DNA of 64,000 bases, taken from contig NZ_CP108494.1 in assembly GCF_041435435.1 (NCBI RefSeq), positions 7,226,501-7,290,500 of the forward strand. Direction: 5' to 3'. Made by a program: the position numbers and the translations under genes. The notes under the pieces are model-generated. The model saw nothing but the letters and a program-made list of their open reading frames with translations. It was not told where the DNA came from and searched no databases. The stretch is from Streptomyces sp. NBC_01241. GTDB taxonomy: Bacteria; Actinomycetota; Actinomycetes; Streptomycetales; Streptomycetaceae. The first letter of the stretch is position 1; the number at the start of each line of letters is the position of its first letter. This document shows, piece by piece, positions 4,059 through 64,000 of the stretch.

Positions 4059-5218
4059 ATGTCAGCGCTGCGCGCGACCGGAGACCGCGGCCATGACCAC
4101 GAGCTGCGGATACGCGGCCTGACCGCCGTCGAGCACCGGGCCTTCGTCTCCACCCGTGCGGACGCGAGCTTTCTGCAATATCCGTCCTGGGCCCCGGTGA
4201 AGGACCAATGGGCCTCCGAAATGGTCGGCCGGCACGGCGACTCCGGCGAACTGACCGGAGCCGCGCCGGTGCTCTGCCGGCAATTCCCCGGTACCCACAA
4301 GTACTTCGCGTATCTGCCACGAGGTCCGGTCGCCGACTGGGCCGATCCCGGCCTCGACCGGTGGCTGCGGCCGCCCGTGGCGCACCTGCGCAAGTCCGGA
4401 GCCTTCGCCGTACGGATCGGCCCCTCACCGGCGCACCGCCGCTGGGACACCGTCCGTCTCAAAGCCGCCACCGGCCCCGGCCGCAAGGTCGGCGACGTAC
4501 TCGCGACCGAGGTGGATCCGCTCGGTACGGCCGTCGCCGATCGGCTCCGGACCCGCGGCCGGCGCCGTTGCGGCGGCGACGGGGGAGAGGACGCCGACGC
4601 GCAGCCGCGCTACGTCTTCCAAGTGCCGCTCGCCGGACGGACCCCCGACGAGCTATGGTCGGGGCTCAACCAGGAGTGGCGCCGCAATGTCCGCAGAAGG
4701 CCGGGGTGCGGATCGTCATCGGCGGCGCGGCCGAACTCCCTGAATTCCACCTTCTGCTGCGGATCACCGAGGAGCGCGACGGCTTCCGGCTCGGCCGCTC
4801 CCTCGCCTATTTCCAGCAGCAGTACGCCGTACTCAACGCCGAGCACCCCGGCCGGATGAGGCTCTACCTCGCCGTCCACCAGGGCGAGATCCTGGCCGCC
4901 CACACCGTGATCAGCACCGGTCGGCGGGTCTGGTACCGGACCGGTGCCTCCGCCGACCACCGGCGCGAGGTCCGGCCCAGCAATGCGCTGCAGTGGAAGA
5001 TGATGCTCGACGCCCATGGGCTCGGTGCCGATATGCACGACATGCGCGGGGTAACCTCCACCCTTGACCCCGACGACCGCCCCTTCGGGTTGCTGCGCTG
5101 GAAGCTCGGCACAGGTGGTCAGGTCATCGAGACCCTCGGAGAGTGGGAGACATCGGTGGGCGGAGCCGCCAACAACACCTTGTACCGGGCATTCCAGGTA
5201 TATCTGGCCCGCCGATGA
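4059..5218 (+). pseudogene. FemX-type peptidoglycan aminoacyltransferase, frameshifted
   Basis: The gene encodes a FemA/FemX-like (Fem/BacC) enzyme that would add amino acids to the lipid II interpeptide bridge using aminoacyl-tRNA. It starts at ATG 4059 with AGGGAGGG 8 bases upstream. The N-terminal half (HELRIRGLTAVEHRAF to LNQEWRRNVR) is in one frame; after position 4694-4697 the homology continues in another frame (KAGVRIVIGGAAELPEFH to YRAFQVYLARR). Family members normally read RNxRKAEKAGV here, so a deletion of 7 bases (AAGGCCG) would explain the break. The two halves together make about 386 residues, near full family length. The stop overlaps the start of the MurJ-like gene (ATGA). It could be a true pseudogene or a sequencing error. 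Confidence 0.8.
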
Positions 5219-6879
5219 CGGCCACCGAGGAGACCCCCGCGAAGGCCGCAGGGCGCACGTCCGGCTCGGTGCTGCGCAGCGGCGCGGTCATGGCGTCCGG
5301 CTCCATCGTCTCCCGGGCGACCGGCTTCGTACGCTCGGCCGTCGTCGTCGCCGCGCTCGGCACCGGACTCCAGGCGGACGGGTACACCGTCGCCAACACC
5401 GTGCCCAACATCCTCTACACGCTGCTCATCGGCGGTGGGCTCAACGCCGTCTTCGTCCCGGAACTCGTACGGGCCGCCAGGAACCACGCCGACGGCGGAG
5501 CCGCGTACACCGACCGGCTGCTCACCCTCTGCACGATCGGGCTCCTCGCCCTCACCGCGATCACGGTCGTCGGCGCACCGTGGATCGTCTCGGTCTACGC
5601 CCCCGACTACCACGGCGCACAGGCCGAACTCACCATCGCCCTGGCCCGCTACTGTCTGCCGCAGATCCTCTTCTACGGACTGTTCACGCTGCTCGGCCAA
5701 GTGCTCAACGCCCGCGACCGGTTCGGCGCGATGATGTGGACCCCCGTCCTCAACAACGTGGTGATCATCGCGGTGTTCGGGATCTATCTGGCCGTCGCGG
5801 CAGGCTCCGACGGGACGTTGACCCCGGCGCAGGCCCAGTGGCTCGGCTGGGGGACCACCGCCGGGATCGCCGTGCAGACCCTTGCCCTGGTGCCCGCACT
5901 GCGCGCCGCGAAGTTCCGCTGGCGGCCGCGGTTCGACTGGCGGGGCAGCGGACTCACCCGGCCGCTGCGCGCGGCCGGCTGGCTCGTCATGCTCGTGCTG
6001 ACCAACCAGATCGCCTACTGGGTGGTCACCCGGCTCTCCACCGCCACCGGTCAGCACGCCGTCGAACAGCATGTGCCGGGCGGTGTGGGCTACACCGCGT
6101 ACAGCTACGCCTATCAGCTGTGGGTGGTGCCGCACGGCATCGTGACCGTCTCGCTCGTCACCGCGCTGATGCCCCGGATGAGCCGGGCGGCGGCCGACGA
6201 CGACCTGGCGGGGGTGCGACGCGATGTCTCGTACGCCCTGCGTACCTCGGCCGCGGTCGTGGTGCCCGCGGTGGCCGTGCTGTTCGCGCTGGCACCGTGG
6301 GTGATCGGGGCCGTGTACGGATACGGGCGCACGGGCGGCGCGGACATCACGGTGATGGCGGGGATGATGATGGCGTTCGCGCCCGGACTGATCGCCTACT
6401 CCGGGCAGTACGTGCTCTCCCGCGCGTTCTACGCGATGAGCGACACCCGCACCCCGTTCCTCCTCAACCTGGTGATTGCCGCGCTCAACGCCGGGCTCTG
6501 CGTCGCCGCGTATCTGCTGCTGCCGGTCCGCTGGGCCGTGACGGGGATGGCCGGGGCGTACTCCGTAGCGCTGTTCGTGGGCTTCGGCGTCACCGCGTAC
6601 GTGCTGCACCGCAGGATCTCCGGCAGCGGCGCCGCCCGGCCCGCACTGCTGCGGTCGCCCGGCTTGTGGGCGCAGGTCCGGCTGGTGGTGGCGAGTGTGC
6701 CCGCCGGGCTGCTGGGGTACCTGGCCGCCCGCGCCTGCTCCGGGTACGGGGACTTCGCAGCGGTGGGGGCGGGGGCCGTCGTCCTCCTGCTCACGGTGGC
6801 GCTGCTGGCCCGGCCGCTCCGGCTGCGGGAGATCAGCGCCGTGATCGCGGCGGGCCGGGGGCGGCTGCGGCGGGCGTGA
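5215..6879 (+). CDS. murJ: MurJ/MviN-family lipid II flippase
   Basis: A 554-residue multispanning membrane protein of the MOP superfamily, the MurJ type that flips lipid II across the membrane. About 14 hydrophobic segments can be followed, and the N-terminal signature GSIVSRATGFVRSAVVVAALG matches the family. The start ATG overlaps the stop of the FemX-like gene (ATGA), implying coupled translation, although that partner is frameshifted. Streptomyces usually carry a core murJ elsewhere near the replication origin, so this may be a paralog dedicated to a modified lipid II. Flippase assignment is by family. Confidence 0.88.
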   Translation: MTATEETPAKAAGRTSGSVLRSGAVMASGSIVSRATGFVRSAVVVAALGTGLQADGYTVANTVPNILYTLLIGGGLNAVFVPELVRAARNHADGGAAYTDRLLTLCTIGLLALTAITVVGAPWIVSVYAPDYHGAQAELTIALARYCLPQILFYGLFTLLGQVLNARDRFGAMMWTPVLNNVVIIAVFGIYLAVAAGSDGTLTPAQAQWLGWGTTAGIAVQTLALVPALRAAKFRWRPRFDWRGSGLTRPLRAAGWLVMLVLTNQIAYWVVTRLSTATGQHAVEQHVPGGVGYTAYSYAYQLWVVPHGIVTVSLVTALMPRMSRAAADDDLAGVRRDVSYALRTSAAVVVPAVAVLFALAPWVIGAVYGYGRTGGADITVMAGMMMAFAPGLIAYSGQYVLSRAFYAMSDTRTPFLLNLVIAALNAGLCVAAYLLLPVRWAVTGMAGAYSVALFVGFGVTAYVLHRRISGSGAARPALLRSPGLWAQVRLVVASVPAGLLGYLAARACSGYGDFAAVGAGAVVLLLTVALLARPLRLREISAVIAAGRGRLRRA

Positions 6880-6945
6880 GCCGGCCGGCCCCAGGGCCCG
6901 CTCACCGGTTCGAATCCATTCCTTGATCGCTGGGATACTGCTGCC

Positions 6946-7664
6946 ATGCCTCGCGTGTTGCTGATCGAAGACGACCCGTCCGTACGCGAAGGGGTCGAGC
7001 TGGGCCTGCGACGGCGCGGGCACGAGCTGCGGGGCGTCGAGACCGGTGAGGAGGGGCTGGCCGCGCTGGGCGAGTTCCGGCCCGATCTGGTGCTGCTCGA
7101 TCTGATGCTCCCCGGAGTGAACGGGTGCAGATCTGCCGCCGCATACGGGAGACCAGCCAGCTGCCGATCATCATGCTCACCGCGCGCGGCGACGACTTCG
7201 ACGTGGTCGTCGGGCTGGAGGCCGGCGCCGACGACTACATCGTCAAGCCCGCCCGTACCGAAGTGATCGAGGCCAGGATCCGGGCCGTCCTGCGCAGGCT
7301 CGCCGAGCCCGCGGGGCGCACCGTCGCACGGGCGTTTGCCCTGCCGGTGGAAGGCGACTCCTCGGGTCCGGGGCACGTGTGGCGTGGCTCCGACAAGGCG
7401 GTCGCCATGCTCTTCGGCGGGCCCACCCAGGCCGAGGCCGAGGCGGGCCTCCGTACCGAACTTCCGCACATTCGAGCCGTGTTGAGGCTGGCTCTGTGGC
7501 CGGACGGTGTGTCGGTCCGGGTGAACACCGCCGTCACGGAACTCTCCGAGGTCGCCCGGCAGCAGCTGATCTGCACGGCCGCGCAGGCCCGCACCACGGA
7601 CCGGAGAGCGGCGGTGAAGGTGACCGGCACCGACGGTGTCATCGGGCCGGCCCACTCCGTCTGA
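6946..7664 (+). pseudogene. truncated, frameshifted OmpR-type response regulator joined to foreign tail
   Basis: The first part (MPRVLLIEDDPSVREGVELG, LVLLDLMLPG) is a receiver domain with its phospho-acceptor Asp. At the GGG run near 7123-7125 one base is missing; the receiver then continues in the next frame as VQICRRIRETSQLPIIMLTARG and GADDYIVKPA, which carries the conserved Lys. After RAVLRRLAEPAGRT the expected winged-helix output domain is absent. Instead about 110 residues follow (VWRGSDKAVAMLFGG, ALWPDGVSVRVNTAVTELSE) that I do not recognise. The junction near 7320 suggests a deletion fused the receiver to the end of another gene. No cognate kinase gene is next to it. Confidence 0.75.
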
Positions 7665-7706
7665 CGAACGTCCGGCCCCGTGGCATGTTTCGTGGGGGTG
7701 CGGGGA

Positions 7707-8450
7707 TCAGCCCGTCGCCCGGTGCGAGTTGCGCGGTGCCGGTACGGGGGTCTGCGCGGACCGTGTCACATCGGCGACGAGTTCCACCACATCGGGTCCG
7801 TATGCCTGCGAGTTGACCACCTTCAGCAGCAGGCAGAAGGTGCTGTTGCCGTGCTTGCGGGACAGCTTCTCGTAGTTGCGGGCCAGATATCGGGAGGCCG
7901 CCTGGTTGGTGATCGCCCGCTGTCCACAGAACAGGAAGACCGGACGGGCATCCTGACTGACCGTCAATCTTGCCAGCAGCACGTATTCGGCGAGGCCCTT
8001 CTCCGCCCGGTAGCGTTCCGAACCGATCTGGAAGGCGCCCCGGTCCGGACCGGGCTCCGGATCGGTGTTGATCCGCACACCGGGCAGCAGGGAATGCAGA
8101 TGGGCGGCCATCCGCCGGTTGGAGCCCGGTCCGCCGACACAGAATTCGGTGCGCTCGCCGAAGCCCTGCTGCGCGATGTCGTGGGACAGGATCTGCGCGT
8201 GTGCCGAACAGTCCTTGATCAGCGCCGAGAGCTCGAGGAGGGCGAAGACGTCGTACCGATGGACGGCGCCGTCGCCGCCTGCGTCGCGGTTGACGACGAG
8301 CAGGCACTCGGAATTGTCCGGCAATCCGAAGAACGCCTGCTTGCGGCGGAGCTTGCGGCGCCAGAGGTAGGTGCGGGCGATCCAGCCCAGCGCGGCGCTG
8401 ATGCCGGCGGCTATCACGCCCAGCACGATGTTGCGTACGTCGTCAGTCAT
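7707..8450 (-). CDS. membrane-anchored protein of unknown function
   Basis: A 247-residue protein with one N-terminal transmembrane segment (NIVLGVIAAGISAALGWIA) followed by a basic stretch (RRKLRRKQ), which suggests the remaining ~215 residues face the cytoplasm. The soluble part contains ECLLVVNRDAGGDGAVHRYDVF, GGPGSNRRMAAHL and ARPVFLFCGQRAITNQAA; the GGP.SN element recalls nucleotide- or ligand-binding loops but I cannot name the fold. It resembles conserved hypothetical proteins common in Streptomyces. It is transcribed away from the ggt gene with about 100 bp between starts. Function unknown. Confidence 0.75.
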   Translation of the reverse strand: MTDDVRNIVLGVIAAGISAALGWIARTYLWRRKLRRKQAFFGLPDNSECLLVVNRDAGGDGAVHRYDVFALLELSALIKDCSAHAQILSHDIAQQGFGERTEFCVGGPGSNRRMAAHLHSLLPGVRINTDPEPGPDRGAFQIGSERYRAEKGLAEYVLLARLTVSQDARPVFLFCGQRAITNQAASRYLARNYEKLSRKHGNSTFCLLLKVVNSQAYGPDVVELVADVTRSAQTPVPAPRNSHRATG

Positions 8451-8558
8451 GGGCGGGCATGTTAGCGGGCGAGATCGGCCCCGGGTTCACGAGTGGTCCT
8501 GACGGGGCGGGGCGTGCGGCGTTACCCTGCGGCGGACAATCCTTCACTGGAGGTGCGC

Positions 8559-10367
8559 ATGCGACGTCCCGTCGCGCGGTATGTGTCGTTGCCGGTCGTT
8601 CTCGCAGCTGTCGTCACGATGGGGGCGGCGGCCCCGTCCTCGTCCGCACCACCGTCCCAGCCACCGCCCAAGTCGCCGGTGGCGGTGGGGTACGGAGGGG
8701 CGGTCTCCAGCGTAGACGCGGATGCGTCGGCCGCCGGCATCGAGGTGCTCCGCAAGGGCGGCAACGCGGTGGACGCGGCGGTGGCGACCGCGGCGGCGCT
8801 CGGCGTGACCGAGCCCTACTCCTCGGGTCTCGGGGGTGGCGGCTATTTCGTCCACTACGACGCCAGGACGCACACCGTGGAAACGATCGACGGCCGCGAG
8901 ACCGCACCGCGCAGTGCGGACTCCTCGCTGTTCCTGGAGAACGGCAAGCCGCTCGCCTTCGACGACGCCGTCACCAGCGGACTCGGCGTGGGCACCCCCG
9001 GTACCCCGGCCACCTGGGCGACCGCGCTCGACGCCTGGGGCAGCAAATCGCTGCGGCAGGTGCTGAAACCGGCCGAACGGCTCGCCAAGGACGGCTTCGT
9101 CGTCGACAGCACGTTCCGCTCGCAGACCGAGGGCAATCAGGCCAGGTTCGCCGACTTCCCGGCGAGCCGGAAGCTCTTCCTGCCGGGCGGCCAACTGCCC
9201 GTGGTCGGCTCGGTGTTCAAGAACCCCGATCTGGCGCGTACGTACGAACAGGTCGGCCGCGAGGGCATCGACGTGCTGTACAAGGGCGAGTTGGCCGACG
9301 ATGTCGTGCGGACCGTACGCAACCCGCCAGTGGACCCGAAGGCCGGCCGGGTCGTACGGCCCGGCGACCTCACGGCCAAGGACCTGCGGTCCTACCGGGT
9401 GCTGCGGCAGGCGCCGACGAAGGTCGGCTACCGCGGCCTCGACGTGTACGGCATGGCGCCGTCCTCGTCCGGCGGCACGAGCGTCGGTGAGGCGCTCAAC
9501 ATCCTTGAGTCCACCGACCTTTCGAAGCTGAGCGAGGCGCAGTACCTGCACCGCTACATCGAGGCGAGCCGGATAGCGTTCGCGGACCGCGGGCGGTGGG
9601 TCGGCGACCCGGCGTTCGAGGACGTACCGACGCGGGGGCTGCTCAGCCAGCGGTTCGCCGACTCGCGGGAGTGCCTGATCAAGGACGACGCGGTGCTGAC
9701 GAGCCCGCTGGCGCCGGGAGATCCCAGCCACCCGGCCGACTGCGGGACCGGTGGCACGGCCGTCCCGACGACGTACGAGGGGGAGAACACCACCCATCTG
9801 ACGACCGCCGACAAGTGGGGCAACGTCGTCGCGTACACCCTCACGATCGAGCAGACGGGCGGCAGCGGCATCACCGTGCCGGGGCGCGGCTATCTGCTCA
9901 ACAACGAGCTGACGGACTTCTCGTTCGCGCCCGCCAACCCGGCGGTCCACGACCCGAACCTGCCCGGTCCGGGCAAGCGTCCGCGCTCGTCCATCTCGCC
10001 GACGATCGTGCTGAAGCACGGCGAGCCGGTGCTGGCCCTCGGGTCGCCGGGCGGTGCCACGATCATCACGACCGTACTGCAGTCGCTCATCGGCACGGTC
10101 GACCGCAGGCTGCCCCTGGTCGACGCCATCGCGGCGCCGCGCGCCAGCCAGCGCAACTCGGCGACCACGGAACTCGAACCGGGACTGTGGAACAGCCCGG
10201 TGCGGGCACAACTGGAGTCGCTGGGGCATGCCTTCAAGCTGAACCCGGAGATCGGTGCGGCGACGGGGGTGCAGCGGCTGCCGGACGGACGGTGGCTGGC
10301 GGCCGCCGAGAAGGTGCGCCGGGGCGGGGGCTCCGCGATGGTCGTGAAGCCGAGCGACCGTCCCTGA
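8559..10367 (+). CDS. ggt: secreted gamma-glutamyltransferase
   Basis: A 602-residue Ntn-hydrolase precursor that cleaves glutathione and other gamma-glutamyl compounds outside the cell. The start is ATG 8559, with GGAGG just upstream, giving a signal peptide (basic N terminus, LPVVLAAVVTMGAAA). The large-subunit motif GGNAVDAAVATAAALGV is near residue 67. The autoprocessing site is NTTH with the catalytic Thr at about residue 411, followed by the family's WGNVVAYTLTIEQ and LNNELTDFSF. GSPGG (oxyanion region) is also present. Length matches bacterial GGTs. It appears monocistronic. Confidence 0.93.
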   Translation: MRRPVARYVSLPVVLAAVVTMGAAAPSSSAPPSQPPPKSPVAVGYGGAVSSVDADASAAGIEVLRKGGNAVDAAVATAAALGVTEPYSSGLGGGGYFVHYDARTHTVETIDGRETAPRSADSSLFLENGKPLAFDDAVTSGLGVGTPGTPATWATALDAWGSKSLRQVLKPAERLAKDGFVVDSTFRSQTEGNQARFADFPASRKLFLPGGQLPVVGSVFKNPDLARTYEQVGREGIDVLYKGELADDVVRTVRNPPVDPKAGRVVRPGDLTAKDLRSYRVLRQAPTKVGYRGLDVYGMAPSSSGGTSVGEALNILESTDLSKLSEAQYLHRYIEASRIAFADRGRWVGDPAFEDVPTRGLLSQRFADSRECLIKDDAVLTSPLAPGDPSHPADCGTGGTAVPTTYEGENTTHLTTADKWGNVVAYTLTIEQTGGSGITVPGRGYLLNNELTDFSFAPANPAVHDPNLPGPGKRPRSSISPTIVLKHGEPVLALGSPGGATIITTVLQSLIGTVDRRLPLVDAIAAPRASQRNSATTELEPGLWNSPVRAQLESLGHAFKLNPEIGAATGVQRLPDGRWLAAAEKVRRGGGSAMVVKPSDRP

Positions 10368-62417: not shown

Positions 62418-63692
62418 TCAGCGATGCCGTGGGCAATCGCCCGGCGTATACGGGGGAACAGCCCCGAGCCGGTCGACGGCCGCTGCTGTCAGTGCGGTGA
62501 TCGCCGGGGGCAGGGCCGTGCGGATGTCCGGGGCGAAATGGGGGGAATGGTTGGGCGGGAGGAGTGCGGGGGAGACGGCCCACTGCTTTGGGCTCGCGGT
62601 CCCGAACATCCAGTAGACCAGGGGGATTCCGGCCTCACCGTGCACGGCGAGGCCCGCATCGCCGTAGAGGGGGAAGTCCTCGGCCGCCATCGACGGCGGC
62701 CAGGTGCCGACCCGTTGCGGGCCGTAGAGGGCGGTGTGAACGTTGCGGATCGCCCGGGTCGTGGCGGGGTCGCCCCACAGCGCGGGTGAGCGGGACACCG
62801 TCGTGAGGTCCGGTTCGCGCGGGCAGGCCGCGGCGCCGCACTCGGCCCGTACGATCCGCTCCACCGCCGCCAGGGCACGGTTCAGGGACTCGTCGGTGAG
62901 CGCCCGCAGACCGATGCCGAGTTCGGCCGTGTCCGGGACCACGTTCACCGCCGTGCCCGCCCGCACGGTGCCGACGGTCAGGGTGACCTGTTCGGCGGGA
63001 GCGCTCTCGCGGGAGACGACGGTCTGGAGACGGCTGATCACGGCCGCCGCCGTCACCACGGGGTCCACGGTGAGGTGGGGGGTGGCGGCGTGGCCGCCCC
63101 GGCCGTGCAGTACGACGCTCAGGGCCGCGCTCGCCGCGGCGACCGGGCCGTGGCCGCTGCCGTGCGCGACCATTCCCGCGGGCAGCGGTGCCGTGTGCTG
63201 GGCCAGGACGACGTCCGGTCTGCCGAAGCGCGCGTACAGGCCGTCGTCCAGCATCGCGCGGGCTCCCGTCAGGGTCTCCTCGGCCGGCTGGCCGAGGACG
63301 ACGAGGGTGCCGCGCCAGTGCGCGGTGGTGCGGGCCAGCAGGTCCGCCGTGCCGGCCGCGGCGGCCAGGTGCAGGTCGTGGCCGCAGGCGTGCATGGCGC
63401 CGTTGTCGCTCGCGTACGGGAGGCCGGTGACCTCCTCCAGGGGCAGGGCGTCCAACTCGGCGCGCACGTACACGCGCGGGCCCTCGCCGTTGCGGAGTTC
63501 ACCGACCACACCATGGCCTCCGATGCCGCGGGTCACCTCGCAGCCGAGGGCGGCGAGCCGGTCGGCGAACAGTGCCGCCGTACGGCGCTCCTCGCCGGAG
63601 AGCTCCGGGTTGCGGTGGACGTCCAGGTAGAGGGTGAGAGCCGGGCGGACCACCTCGTCGGCGCGGGCGAGAGTGGGGTGGGTCTGGGGCAT
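62418..63692 (-). CDS. M20-family amidohydrolase (hippurate/indole-acetyl-amino acid hydrolase type)
   Basis: A 424-residue metal-dependent peptidase. Metal-binding features are ACGHDLHLAAAAGTADLL with the first His/Asp, AEETLTGARAMLDDGL with the Glu pair, and HTAPLPAGMVAHGSG. The dimerisation domain has GRGGHAATPHLTVDPVVTAA and the late SMAAEDFPLY carries the conserved AEDF. The start is ATG 63692 with GGAG 8 bases upstream. It removes acyl groups from N-acyl amino acids. It is divergent from the thiopeptide-type precursor gene. Confidence 0.92.
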   Translation of the reverse strand: MPQTHPTLARADEVVRPALTLYLDVHRNPELSGEERRTAALFADRLAALGCEVTRGIGGHGVVGELRNGEGPRVYVRAELDALPLEEVTGLPYASDNGAMHACGHDLHLAAAAGTADLLARTTAHWRGTLVVLGQPAEETLTGARAMLDDGLYARFGRPDVVLAQHTAPLPAGMVAHGSGHGPVAAASAALSVVLHGRGGHAATPHLTVDPVVTAAAVISRLQTVVSRESAPAEQVTLTVGTVRAGTAVNVVPDTAELGIGLRALTDESLNRALAAVERIVRAECGAAACPREPDLTTVSRSPALWGDPATTRAIRNVHTALYGPQRVGTWPPSMAAEDFPLYGDAGLAVHGEAGIPLVYWMFGTASPKQWAVSPALLPPNHSPHFAPDIRTALPPAITALTAAAVDRLGAVPPYTPGDCPRHR

Positions 63693-63862
63693 ATCGGGGC
63701 TCCTCGGCGGATGTGTGCGGCCGTTGCTGTCGGGTGCTGGCGCGGCGTGCCAGCGATGTGTGTGCGGGAGGCATGCCGAACGGTGAGCGGTGGCCGGTGG
63801 AATGAGTGGCACACACCGGTAGCCGGCGAGCCCGGCCCGGGCCCCGATCAGGAGGAGACACC

Positions 63863-64000
63863 ATGAACAAGGACCTGAGCACCCTCGCCGACGAGATCCT
63901 CGAGCTCGAGGCCGAGACCTTCGAGATCTCCGACTACTCGGACGCCAGCGAGGTCGTGCTGGCCGGTTCCACCAGCTGCAGCTCGACCTCGACCTGCAGC
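63863..64000 (+). CDS. thiopeptide-type (thiazolyl peptide) precursor, 3' end outside window
   Basis: The last 46 codons of the window begin at ATG 63863 with GGAGGAG 7 bases upstream. The acidic leader (LADEILELEAETFEISDYSD) is followed by EVVLAG and a core of Ser, Thr and Cys (STSCSSTSTCS...) that runs off the edge. The leader 'FEISDYxD' and the Ser/Thr/Cys-only core are characteristic of thiopeptide precursors (TIGR03892 type) such as those of the thiostrepton and berninamycin groups. Azoles would come from Cys and dehydroamino acids from Ser/Thr. The modification enzymes should lie beyond 64000. Confidence 0.85.
   Translation, partial: MNKDLSTLADEILELEAETFEISDYSDASEVVLAGSTSCSSTSTCS

What the first reader, a model, noticed from the sequence alone, without database searches (positions are those of the whole stretch)
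63863..64000. Thiopeptide precursor at the right edge with a core of only Ser, Thr and Cys so far
The leader ends EVVLAG and the visible core is STSCSSTSTCS, a Ser/Thr-heavy pattern with few Cys. I do not recognise it as a known thiopeptide core; more Ser/Thr than Cys predicts many dehydroamino acids, as in berninamycin-like compounds.
Basis: partly seen in the sequence, partly recalled or inferred. Interest (0 to 1): 0.75.

Follow-up and report, generated by a model that had tools for sequence, protein, structure and literature searches.

The report
Remnant of an azole-peptide gene cluster
The gene at the window's edge encodes a real small-peptide precursor whose working part is made almost only of serine, threonine and cysteine; other Streptomyces carry it inside a complete cluster that should make a linear (not ring-shaped) modified peptide, but in this strain most of that cluster has been lost.

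Summary
Observation confirmed. Read past the edge, the precursor is MNKDLSTLADEILELEAETFEISDYSDASEVVLAG|STSCSSTSTCSSTTSTTSCTA (56 aa): apart from the last Ala the core is only Ser/Thr/Cys. It passes both NCBIfam "thiazolylpeptide-type bacteriocin" cut-offs; 33 of 198 other genomes sampled from its genus hold a relative.

The thiopeptide reading is only partly right. In 9 of 9 relatives examined the cluster encodes two YcaO cyclodehydratases (fused to leader-binding domains where tested), a SagB dehydrogenase, split LanB, an M50 protease and an ABC-2 exporter. Its single PF14028 protein looks like the glutamate-elimination type, not the pyridine synthase. The expected product is a linear azole plus dehydroamino-acid peptide (goadsporin-like in logic).

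In the window's own genome the locus is a remnant: YcaO and ABC ATPase genes are frame-broken, the M50 gene is cut and joined to DNA upstream of a hisN-like gene, and SagB, both LanB parts and the first cyclodehydratase are gone. The only PF04738/PF14028 genes lie about 540 kb away, in a second cluster with its own Ser/Cys/Thr-only core.

Among 41 distinct genes all 6 variable core positions stay within Ser/Thr/Cys and admit Cys; a ring/dehydration code is possible, untested.

The parts
63863..64000 (+). Precursor peptide gene (continues past the window to G000:C1:7290533): leader residues 1-35 ending VVLAG, core residues 36-56 STSCSSTSTCSSTTSTTSCTA (cleavage site assumed). The other genes of the remnant lie beyond the window and are listed in the full report.
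63850..63855 (+). AGGAGG ribosome-binding site 7 bases before the ATG (read from the sequence)
62418..63692 (-). M20-family amidohydrolase/peptidase (424 aa), divergent from the precursor; present beside 7 of 8 relative clusters where that flank was held

Best explanation
The gene is the intact precursor of a decayed copy of a cluster widespread in Streptomyces and found in other Actinomycetes. In intact clusters the leader (LExxTF motif, 20 of 20 rows of A1) is expected to be bound by the TIGR03882 domains of two fused cyclodehydratases; their YcaO domains turn some Cys/Ser/Thr of the core into azolines; the SagB dehydrogenase oxidises them to azoles; the split LanB (glutamylation protein PF04738, then elimination protein PF14028) turns some Ser/Thr into dehydroamino acids; an M50 and/or M20 peptidase removes the leader and an ABC-2 transporter exports the product. 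With no pyridine synthase the product should be linear. Shown here: gene content, order, conservation, loss in this genome. Inferred from families: every catalytic step, the order of steps, the linear product. In this strain the locus cannot make it alone: SagB, LanB and the first cyclodehydratase are missing and the remaining YcaO is frame-broken.
For: Intact relatives: in 9 of 9 other genomes whose surroundings I fetched, two YcaO genes, SagB, PF04738, PF14028, M50, ABC ATPase and permease lie with the precursor (in one, L060/L061, YcaO and PF14028 genes fall into broken frames). Of 18 genomes searched for PF14028 all 17 others have one 3.5-12.1 kb from the precursor (distances worked out by me); in the window's genome the only one is 540 kb away. 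Elimination rather than pyridine synthase: NF045556 scores like those of the elimination partners (49-96 bits) and far below those of pyridine synthases; an H-x-x-NNR motif near the C-terminus in 9 of 9 cluster proteins, HLxxNR in 4 of 4 partners, neither in 4 of 4 pyridine synthases. Decay: YcaO in two frames, ABC ATPase in two frames, M50 cut at L002 about 9337-9345; among 392 genomes of the genus only G000 shows the junction in a printed match (the list was cut). One PF04738 and one PF14028 gene in the genome, both in another cluster.
Against: No product, transcript or enzyme activity was tested. The tree does not group the cluster PF14028 proteins with the elimination partners: partners and pyridine synthases lie together on the far side of a branch with support 1.000 (unrooted), so the elimination role rests on the model scores, the motif and the absence of a second PF14028 gene. 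By score the LanB glutamylation protein is nearer TbtB of the thiopeptide thiomuracin (6ec7, 150.9 bits; the name TbtB for that entry is recalled) than the goadsporin protein 9jhq (52.6 bits), so goadsporin is a likeness in gene logic, not shown close kinship. Frame breaks could be sequencing errors, although the second cluster of the same assembly has 6 of 6 genes aligned in one frame each.
Confidence: 0.85

Rival explanations
1. A true thiopeptide precursor: the single PF14028 protein does both jobs, or a diverged enzyme closes a macrocycle between two dehydroalanines of the core.
For: Precursor passes TIGR03892 and NF033400; the PF14028 protein's only significant solved-structure match by sequence is the pyridine synthase TbtD, 42 bits; LanB-N nearest to a thiopeptide-type LanB structure; tree does not place the cluster proteins with the elimination partners.
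Against: PF14028 protein scores 96 bits on the pyridine-synthase model against a cut-off of 325 and four positives at 389-470; own genome has no match over the cut-off.
Confidence: 0.05
2. The orphan precursor is still matured in this strain, in trans, by the second cluster about 530 kb away (own precursor core SSSSCSCSSCCSCSTSSCCSCSSSTS), whose leader shares the LExxTFEI motif.
For: Second cluster holds ThiF-like/leader-binding protein, fused YcaO, SagB, both LanB parts, M50 and ABC genes; both precursors carry L-E-S/A-x-T-F-E-I; the window precursor's reading frame and core are intact.
Against: Its six matched enzymes are only 34-43% identical to those of the intact L048 cluster; leaders otherwise differ; the second precursor reaches E 1e-4 on no NCBIfam model while the first passes two; no expression data.
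Confidence: 0.2
3. The frame breaks are assembly errors and the cluster is functional.
For: Another single-contig relative (L060/L061) also shows broken frames in the same cluster.
Against: Frame errors cannot explain the missing SagB, LanB-N, LanB-C, first YcaO and M50 N-terminus; the second cluster in the same assembly is unbroken.
Confidence: 0.05

Closest known systems
Goadsporin (god cluster, Streptomyces sp. TP-A0584)
   Same: Fused cyclodehydratase, SagB-type dehydrogenase, split LanB dehydratase, no [4+2] enzyme (passages of PMC4603692 and PMC5303826); precursor of 30-residue leader and 19-residue core.
   Different: Two YcaO cyclodehydratases instead of one; ABC-2 permease/ATPase plus M50 protease instead of an ABC transporter with N-terminal peptidase; core almost wholly Ser/Thr/Cys; LanB-N scores far lower against 9jhq, named a goadsporin biosynthetic protein, than against 6ec7. 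GodH-type acetyltransferase not looked for.
Coryneazolisins (predicted only; Cox et al. 2015, PMC4603692 section 26 read)
   Same: Two YcaO proteins, LanB-like dehydratases, no [4+2] enzyme, core of long Cys/Ser/Thr runs; a subset of clusters is called possibly inactive.
   Different: There one YcaO is discrete and one fused, here both fused; their core has an Ile between two Cys/Ser/Thr runs; Corynebacterium, not Streptomyces. Sequences were not compared here.
Spongiicolazolicins (Streptomyces sp. CWH03)
   Same: Linear azole peptides of Streptomyces, named with goadsporin as having azoles and dehydroamino acids (PMC10676384 part 1; passages of PMC8838263).
Thiopeptides (thiomuracin and others)
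   Same: Precursor profile, YcaO, SagB, split LanB whose best structural match is a thiopeptide-type one.
   Different: No protein passing the pyridine-synthase model.
Dehydrazoles (carnazolamide, PMC10676384, parts 1-3 of 7 read)
   Same: Azoles plus dehydroalanine before azoles.
   Different: Use a LanM-type DUF4135 dehydratase and a nitrile-hydratase-like leader; example from a Chryseobacterium.

Membership tests
Thiopeptide | Pyridine synthase ([4+2] cycloaddition enzyme) | tested here: not met
   NF045556 96 bits (L048 protein), 115 (second cluster), cut-off 325; four proteins over it 389-470; own genome 0 over cut-off
Thiopeptide | Thiopeptide-type precursor | tested here: met
   TIGR03892 48.0 bits, NF033400 40.0 bits, both over cut-off
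Thiopeptide | Macrocyclic product with six-membered nitrogen heterocycle | not testable with these tools
   no chemistry available
Goadsporin-like linear azole + dehydroamino-acid peptide | Fused C-YcaO cyclodehydratase | tested here: met
   TIGR03882 + TIGR03604 on one protein in L048 and L064; at the window's locus present but split in two frames
Goadsporin-like linear azole + dehydroamino-acid peptide | SagB dehydrogenase and split LanB, no [4+2] enzyme, in the cluster | tested here: met
   SagB and split LanB in 9 of 9 fetched relative clusters, one PF14028 gene each near the precursor; NOT met at the window's own locus
Goadsporin-like linear azole + dehydroamino-acid peptide | ABC transporter with N-terminal peptidase (GodB type) | tested here: not met
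   ATPase of L048 hits only ATPase models; only that relative was scanned
Goadsporin-like linear azole + dehydroamino-acid peptide | GodH-type acetyltransferase | not tested
   no search made
Coryneazolisin | One discrete and one fused YcaO | tested here: not met
   both YcaO proteins carry TIGR03882 and TIGR03604 (tested on L048 for one and L064 for the other)
Dehydrazole | DUF4135 LanM-type dehydratase | tested here: not met
   dehydratase of L048 is PF04738 + PF14028; none of its 6 scanned proteins hits DUF4135
Lanthipeptide | LanC cyclase | tested here: inconclusive
   none among the 6 L048 proteins scanned; whole genome not searched for it

The most novel reading that the evidence does not exclude
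A genus-wide peptide with a positional chemical code: core positions that accept Cys (1, 2, 4, 10, 14, 19, 20) are the azole sites and the 13 invariant never-Cys Ser/Thr positions include the dehydration sites, giving a linear chain in which nearly every residue is modified; and in this strain the stranded precursor is still processed in trans by the second Ser/Cys/Thr-core cluster. Against it: a Nocardiopsis core of the same length has Cys at 9, 13 and 16, positions that never hold Cys in the 41 genes, so the code cannot reach that far unless the cores align differently.
Probability: 0.12. Interest if true: 0.65.

Novelty: new variant of a known kind. Interest (0 to 1): 0.42.

Why it matters
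About one in six genomes sampled from the genus carries a relative of this precursor, most with an almost unchanged Ser/Thr/Cys core, yet the five core strings tried are in none of the open-access papers searched, and the family name in NCBI's models likely points to the wrong product class. Such conservation suggests a shared role rather than a varied weapon (inference). The natural Cys/Ser/Thr swaps make the question of how YcaO and LanB divide Ser/Thr between them, said to be unknown in PMC10676384, testable on natural variants. The window's strain itself holds only a remnant.

Tried and rejected
Thiopeptide reading: set aside on the pyridine-synthase test. Prophage as the cause of the truncation: rejected; the prophage-like element (about 56 kb, about C1:7295589-7351585) sits inside the hisN-like gene about 745 bp beyond the M50 break. 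Plasmid search with the precursor: no match. dN/dS on the core (0.76, leader 0.17) was not used: switches between TCN and AGC serine codons count as amino-acid changes although Ser is kept. Two matches (G065, G100) reach 40-47 bases across the junction; aligned here they are gapped extensions, and the M50 side alone finds nothing in them. tRNA search on L002: none. Structure prediction and fold search were not used. Paper searches for the core strings (0 papers), spongiicolazolicin, coryneazolisin, thiazolylpeptide-type bacteriocin and term combinations: no listing or passage that I saw describes this core; most listed papers were not opened, and subscription journals and supplements were not searched.

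Full report
OBSERVATION. The window is G000:C1:7226501-7290500 of an 8.98-Mb, 3-contig genome. The held genome gives the part cut off by the window edge: 56 residues, MNKDLSTLADEILELEAETFEISDYSDASEVVLAG / STSCSSTSTCSSTTSTTSCTA, stop at C1:7290533. AGGAGG precedes the ATG by 7 bases. It passes two NCBIfam precursor models. A Ser/Thr/Cys-only run of 20 residues is far outside the background of the window, where the next longest in six frames is 9.

GENES BEYOND THE WINDOW (L002 coordinates; add 59000 for extrapolated window coordinates). Hairpin 5062-5089; YcaO gene 5118-7063 minus strand, split between two frames near 5927-5930; ABC-2 permease 7063-7797 minus; ABC ATPase 7878-8782 minus, frame break near 7964-7967, after residue 278 of the 327-residue L048 protein; C-terminal part of an M50 protease 8860-9339 minus; hisN-like gene 9424-10170 plus.

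RELATIVES. With profile A1 18 of 394 genomes of the class match, its own included, in 5 of 137 genera; A1 contains sequences from several of these genomes, including the own genome's second precursor, so their E-values are not independent.

THE INTACT CLUSTER. I fetched surroundings in 9 other genomes (L048/L063, L047/L064, L060/L061, L062, L065/L066, L067, L068, L069, L071). In all 9: YcaO, SagB, LanB-N (PF04738), LanB-C (PF14028), M50, ABC ATPase, permease, second YcaO, precursor(s), found by tblastn with the L048 proteins; in L067 the precursors lie between permease and YcaO. An M20 peptidase flanks 7 of the 8 where that side was held (not in L067; in L062 that side was not fetched). Family assignments rest on L048 and, for the other YcaO, on L064. 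Of 18 genomes searched for PF14028 (12 of the 21 loci, 5 of the 33 other genomes, and G000), the 17 others have one within 3.5-12.1 kb of the precursor (distances are my arithmetic; about 12 kb in two, G092 and G200, whose precursor therefore lies further from the enzymes; in G171 the gene is in two pieces).

ELIMINATION OR PYRIDINE SYNTHASE. The genomes of L053 and L054 also carry other clusters with two adjacent PF14028 genes (L078-L081), which served as yardsticks. Their second proteins score 389, 470, 436 and 431 bits on NF045556 (cut-off 325); their first proteins 91, 96, 93 and 49; the L048 protein 96 and the second cluster's protein 115 (the other cluster proteins were not scored). In the tree the four pyridine synthases form one group (support 1.000). 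The 9 cluster proteins and T210c (the PF14028 protein near the L054 precursor) lie together at the other end, but the elimination partners lie on the pyridine-synthase side of the dividing branch, so the unrooted tree says 'not within the pyridine synthases' and no more. The cluster proteins (9 of 9) and T210c keep H-x-x-NNR, the four partners HLxxNR, the four pyridine synthases neither. The reading of that histidine and arginine as elimination residues is recalled, not from a call.

THE WINDOW'S OWN LOCUS. The YcaO gene lies in two frames that meet near C1:7291424-7291427; the ABC ATPase alignment breaks between two frames near its C-terminus; the permease aligns in one. The M50 gene keeps only residues 214-371 of 374. 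Sequence to L002 about 9336 matches intact clusters (86% in G053); from about 9345 it matches DNA before and in a hisN-like gene of other genomes (91% in G075), beginning in the last codons of a gene that reads like a gamma-glutamyltransferase (by eye). Among 392 genomes searched only G000 shows one match across both parts in the printed list, which was cut; two matches that reach 40-47 bases across were checked and do not contain the M50 side. SagB and LanB-N searches find only a copy at C1:7826533-7830534, 45% and 42% identical; there is one PF14028 and one PF04738 gene in the genome, and the YcaO matches are the two halves here, one full one and one weak one in the second cluster. So the precursor is stranded. 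Two broken genes of three left (the cut M50 apart), against 6 of 6 genes unbroken in the second cluster, favour real decay over sequencing error; error is not excluded, and a relative (L060/L061) has broken frames too.

THE CORE. Among 41 distinct DNA sequences of equal alignable length (18 distinct peptides after trimming the N-terminus; shorter or divergent precursors such as those of L049, L050, L052-L054, L059 and L069 were left out of this count), positions 1, 2, 4, 10, 14 and 20 vary, always within Ser/Thr/Cys, and Cys occurs at each; position 19 is always Cys, 21 always Ala, and the other 13 never vary and are never Cys. Of single-base replacement changes (stops counted) possible in the core's first 20 codons 37 of 134 would stay in Ser/Thr/Cys. 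Both serine codon families occur at positions 3, 5, 6, 8, 11, 12, 15, 18 and 20. The sequences are related, so this is no count of independent events. Since Cys can be cyclised but not dehydrated by LanB, Cys-tolerant positions are the likely azole sites (inference). Against a general code: the Nocardiopsis core of the same length, TTSTSSTSCTSSCCSCTSCAS, has Cys at 9, 13, 14, 16 and 19. In goadsporin the glutamylating enzyme needed azoles made first (PMC5303826, passages).

LITERATURE. Cox et al. (PMC4603692; abstract, sections 12, 17, 26 and passages of others) describe goadsporin and predicted coryneazolisins as azole peptides with LanB-like dehydratases and no [4+2] enzyme. PMC10676384 (abstract and parts 1-3 of 7) describes dehydrazoles and names goadsporin and spongiicolazolicins as known azole plus dehydro peptides. 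PMC8838263 and PMC5303826 were seen in passages. The five core strings are in 0 papers of the library.

VERDICT. A genuine precursor in a remnant of a widespread branch of RiPPs, undescribed in what I could search, that should be linear azole/dehydroamino-acid peptides; very likely not a thiopeptide; product, activity and trans maturation untested.

Noticed in passing
G000:C1:7821533-7833803 (L059:3033-15303): Second RiPP cluster in the same genome: ThiF-like/leader-binding protein, precursor MSVELKDELSVLESATFEIEEMTDESVELAWSSSSCSCSSCCSCSTSSCCSCSSSTS with a core of only Ser, Cys and Thr, fused YcaO, SagB, both LanB parts, M50, ABC ATPase; the precursor reaches E 1e-4 on no NCBIfam model.
   Followed up: partly
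G000:C1 about 7295589-7351585 (L002:10089 to L070:6085): A prophage-like element of about 56 kb and about 55% GC (phage-like frames by eye, no family search) sits inside a hisN-like gene, whose 3' part lies on the far side.
   Followed up: partly
L050, L052, L053, L054: Two or three precursors per cluster in Nocardioides, Catellatospora, Nocardiopsis and Virgisporangium, with diverging Ser/Thr/Cys-rich cores.
   Followed up: no
L048:14058-15182, L059:13170-14240: M50 proteases of the clusters match NF041824 (daptide intramembrane metalloprotease, 92 and 108 bits, cut-off 300), suggesting a related protease in several RiPP classes.
   Followed up: no
L060:10213-16259 (G171): A relative with the same core as the window (Thr at position 20) has its YcaO and PF14028 genes in broken or overlapping frames; decay or sequencing error.
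   Followed up: no
L002:5062-5089 (just beyond the window): Strong 12-bp hairpin between the convergent precursor and YcaO genes, terminator-like.
   Followed up: no
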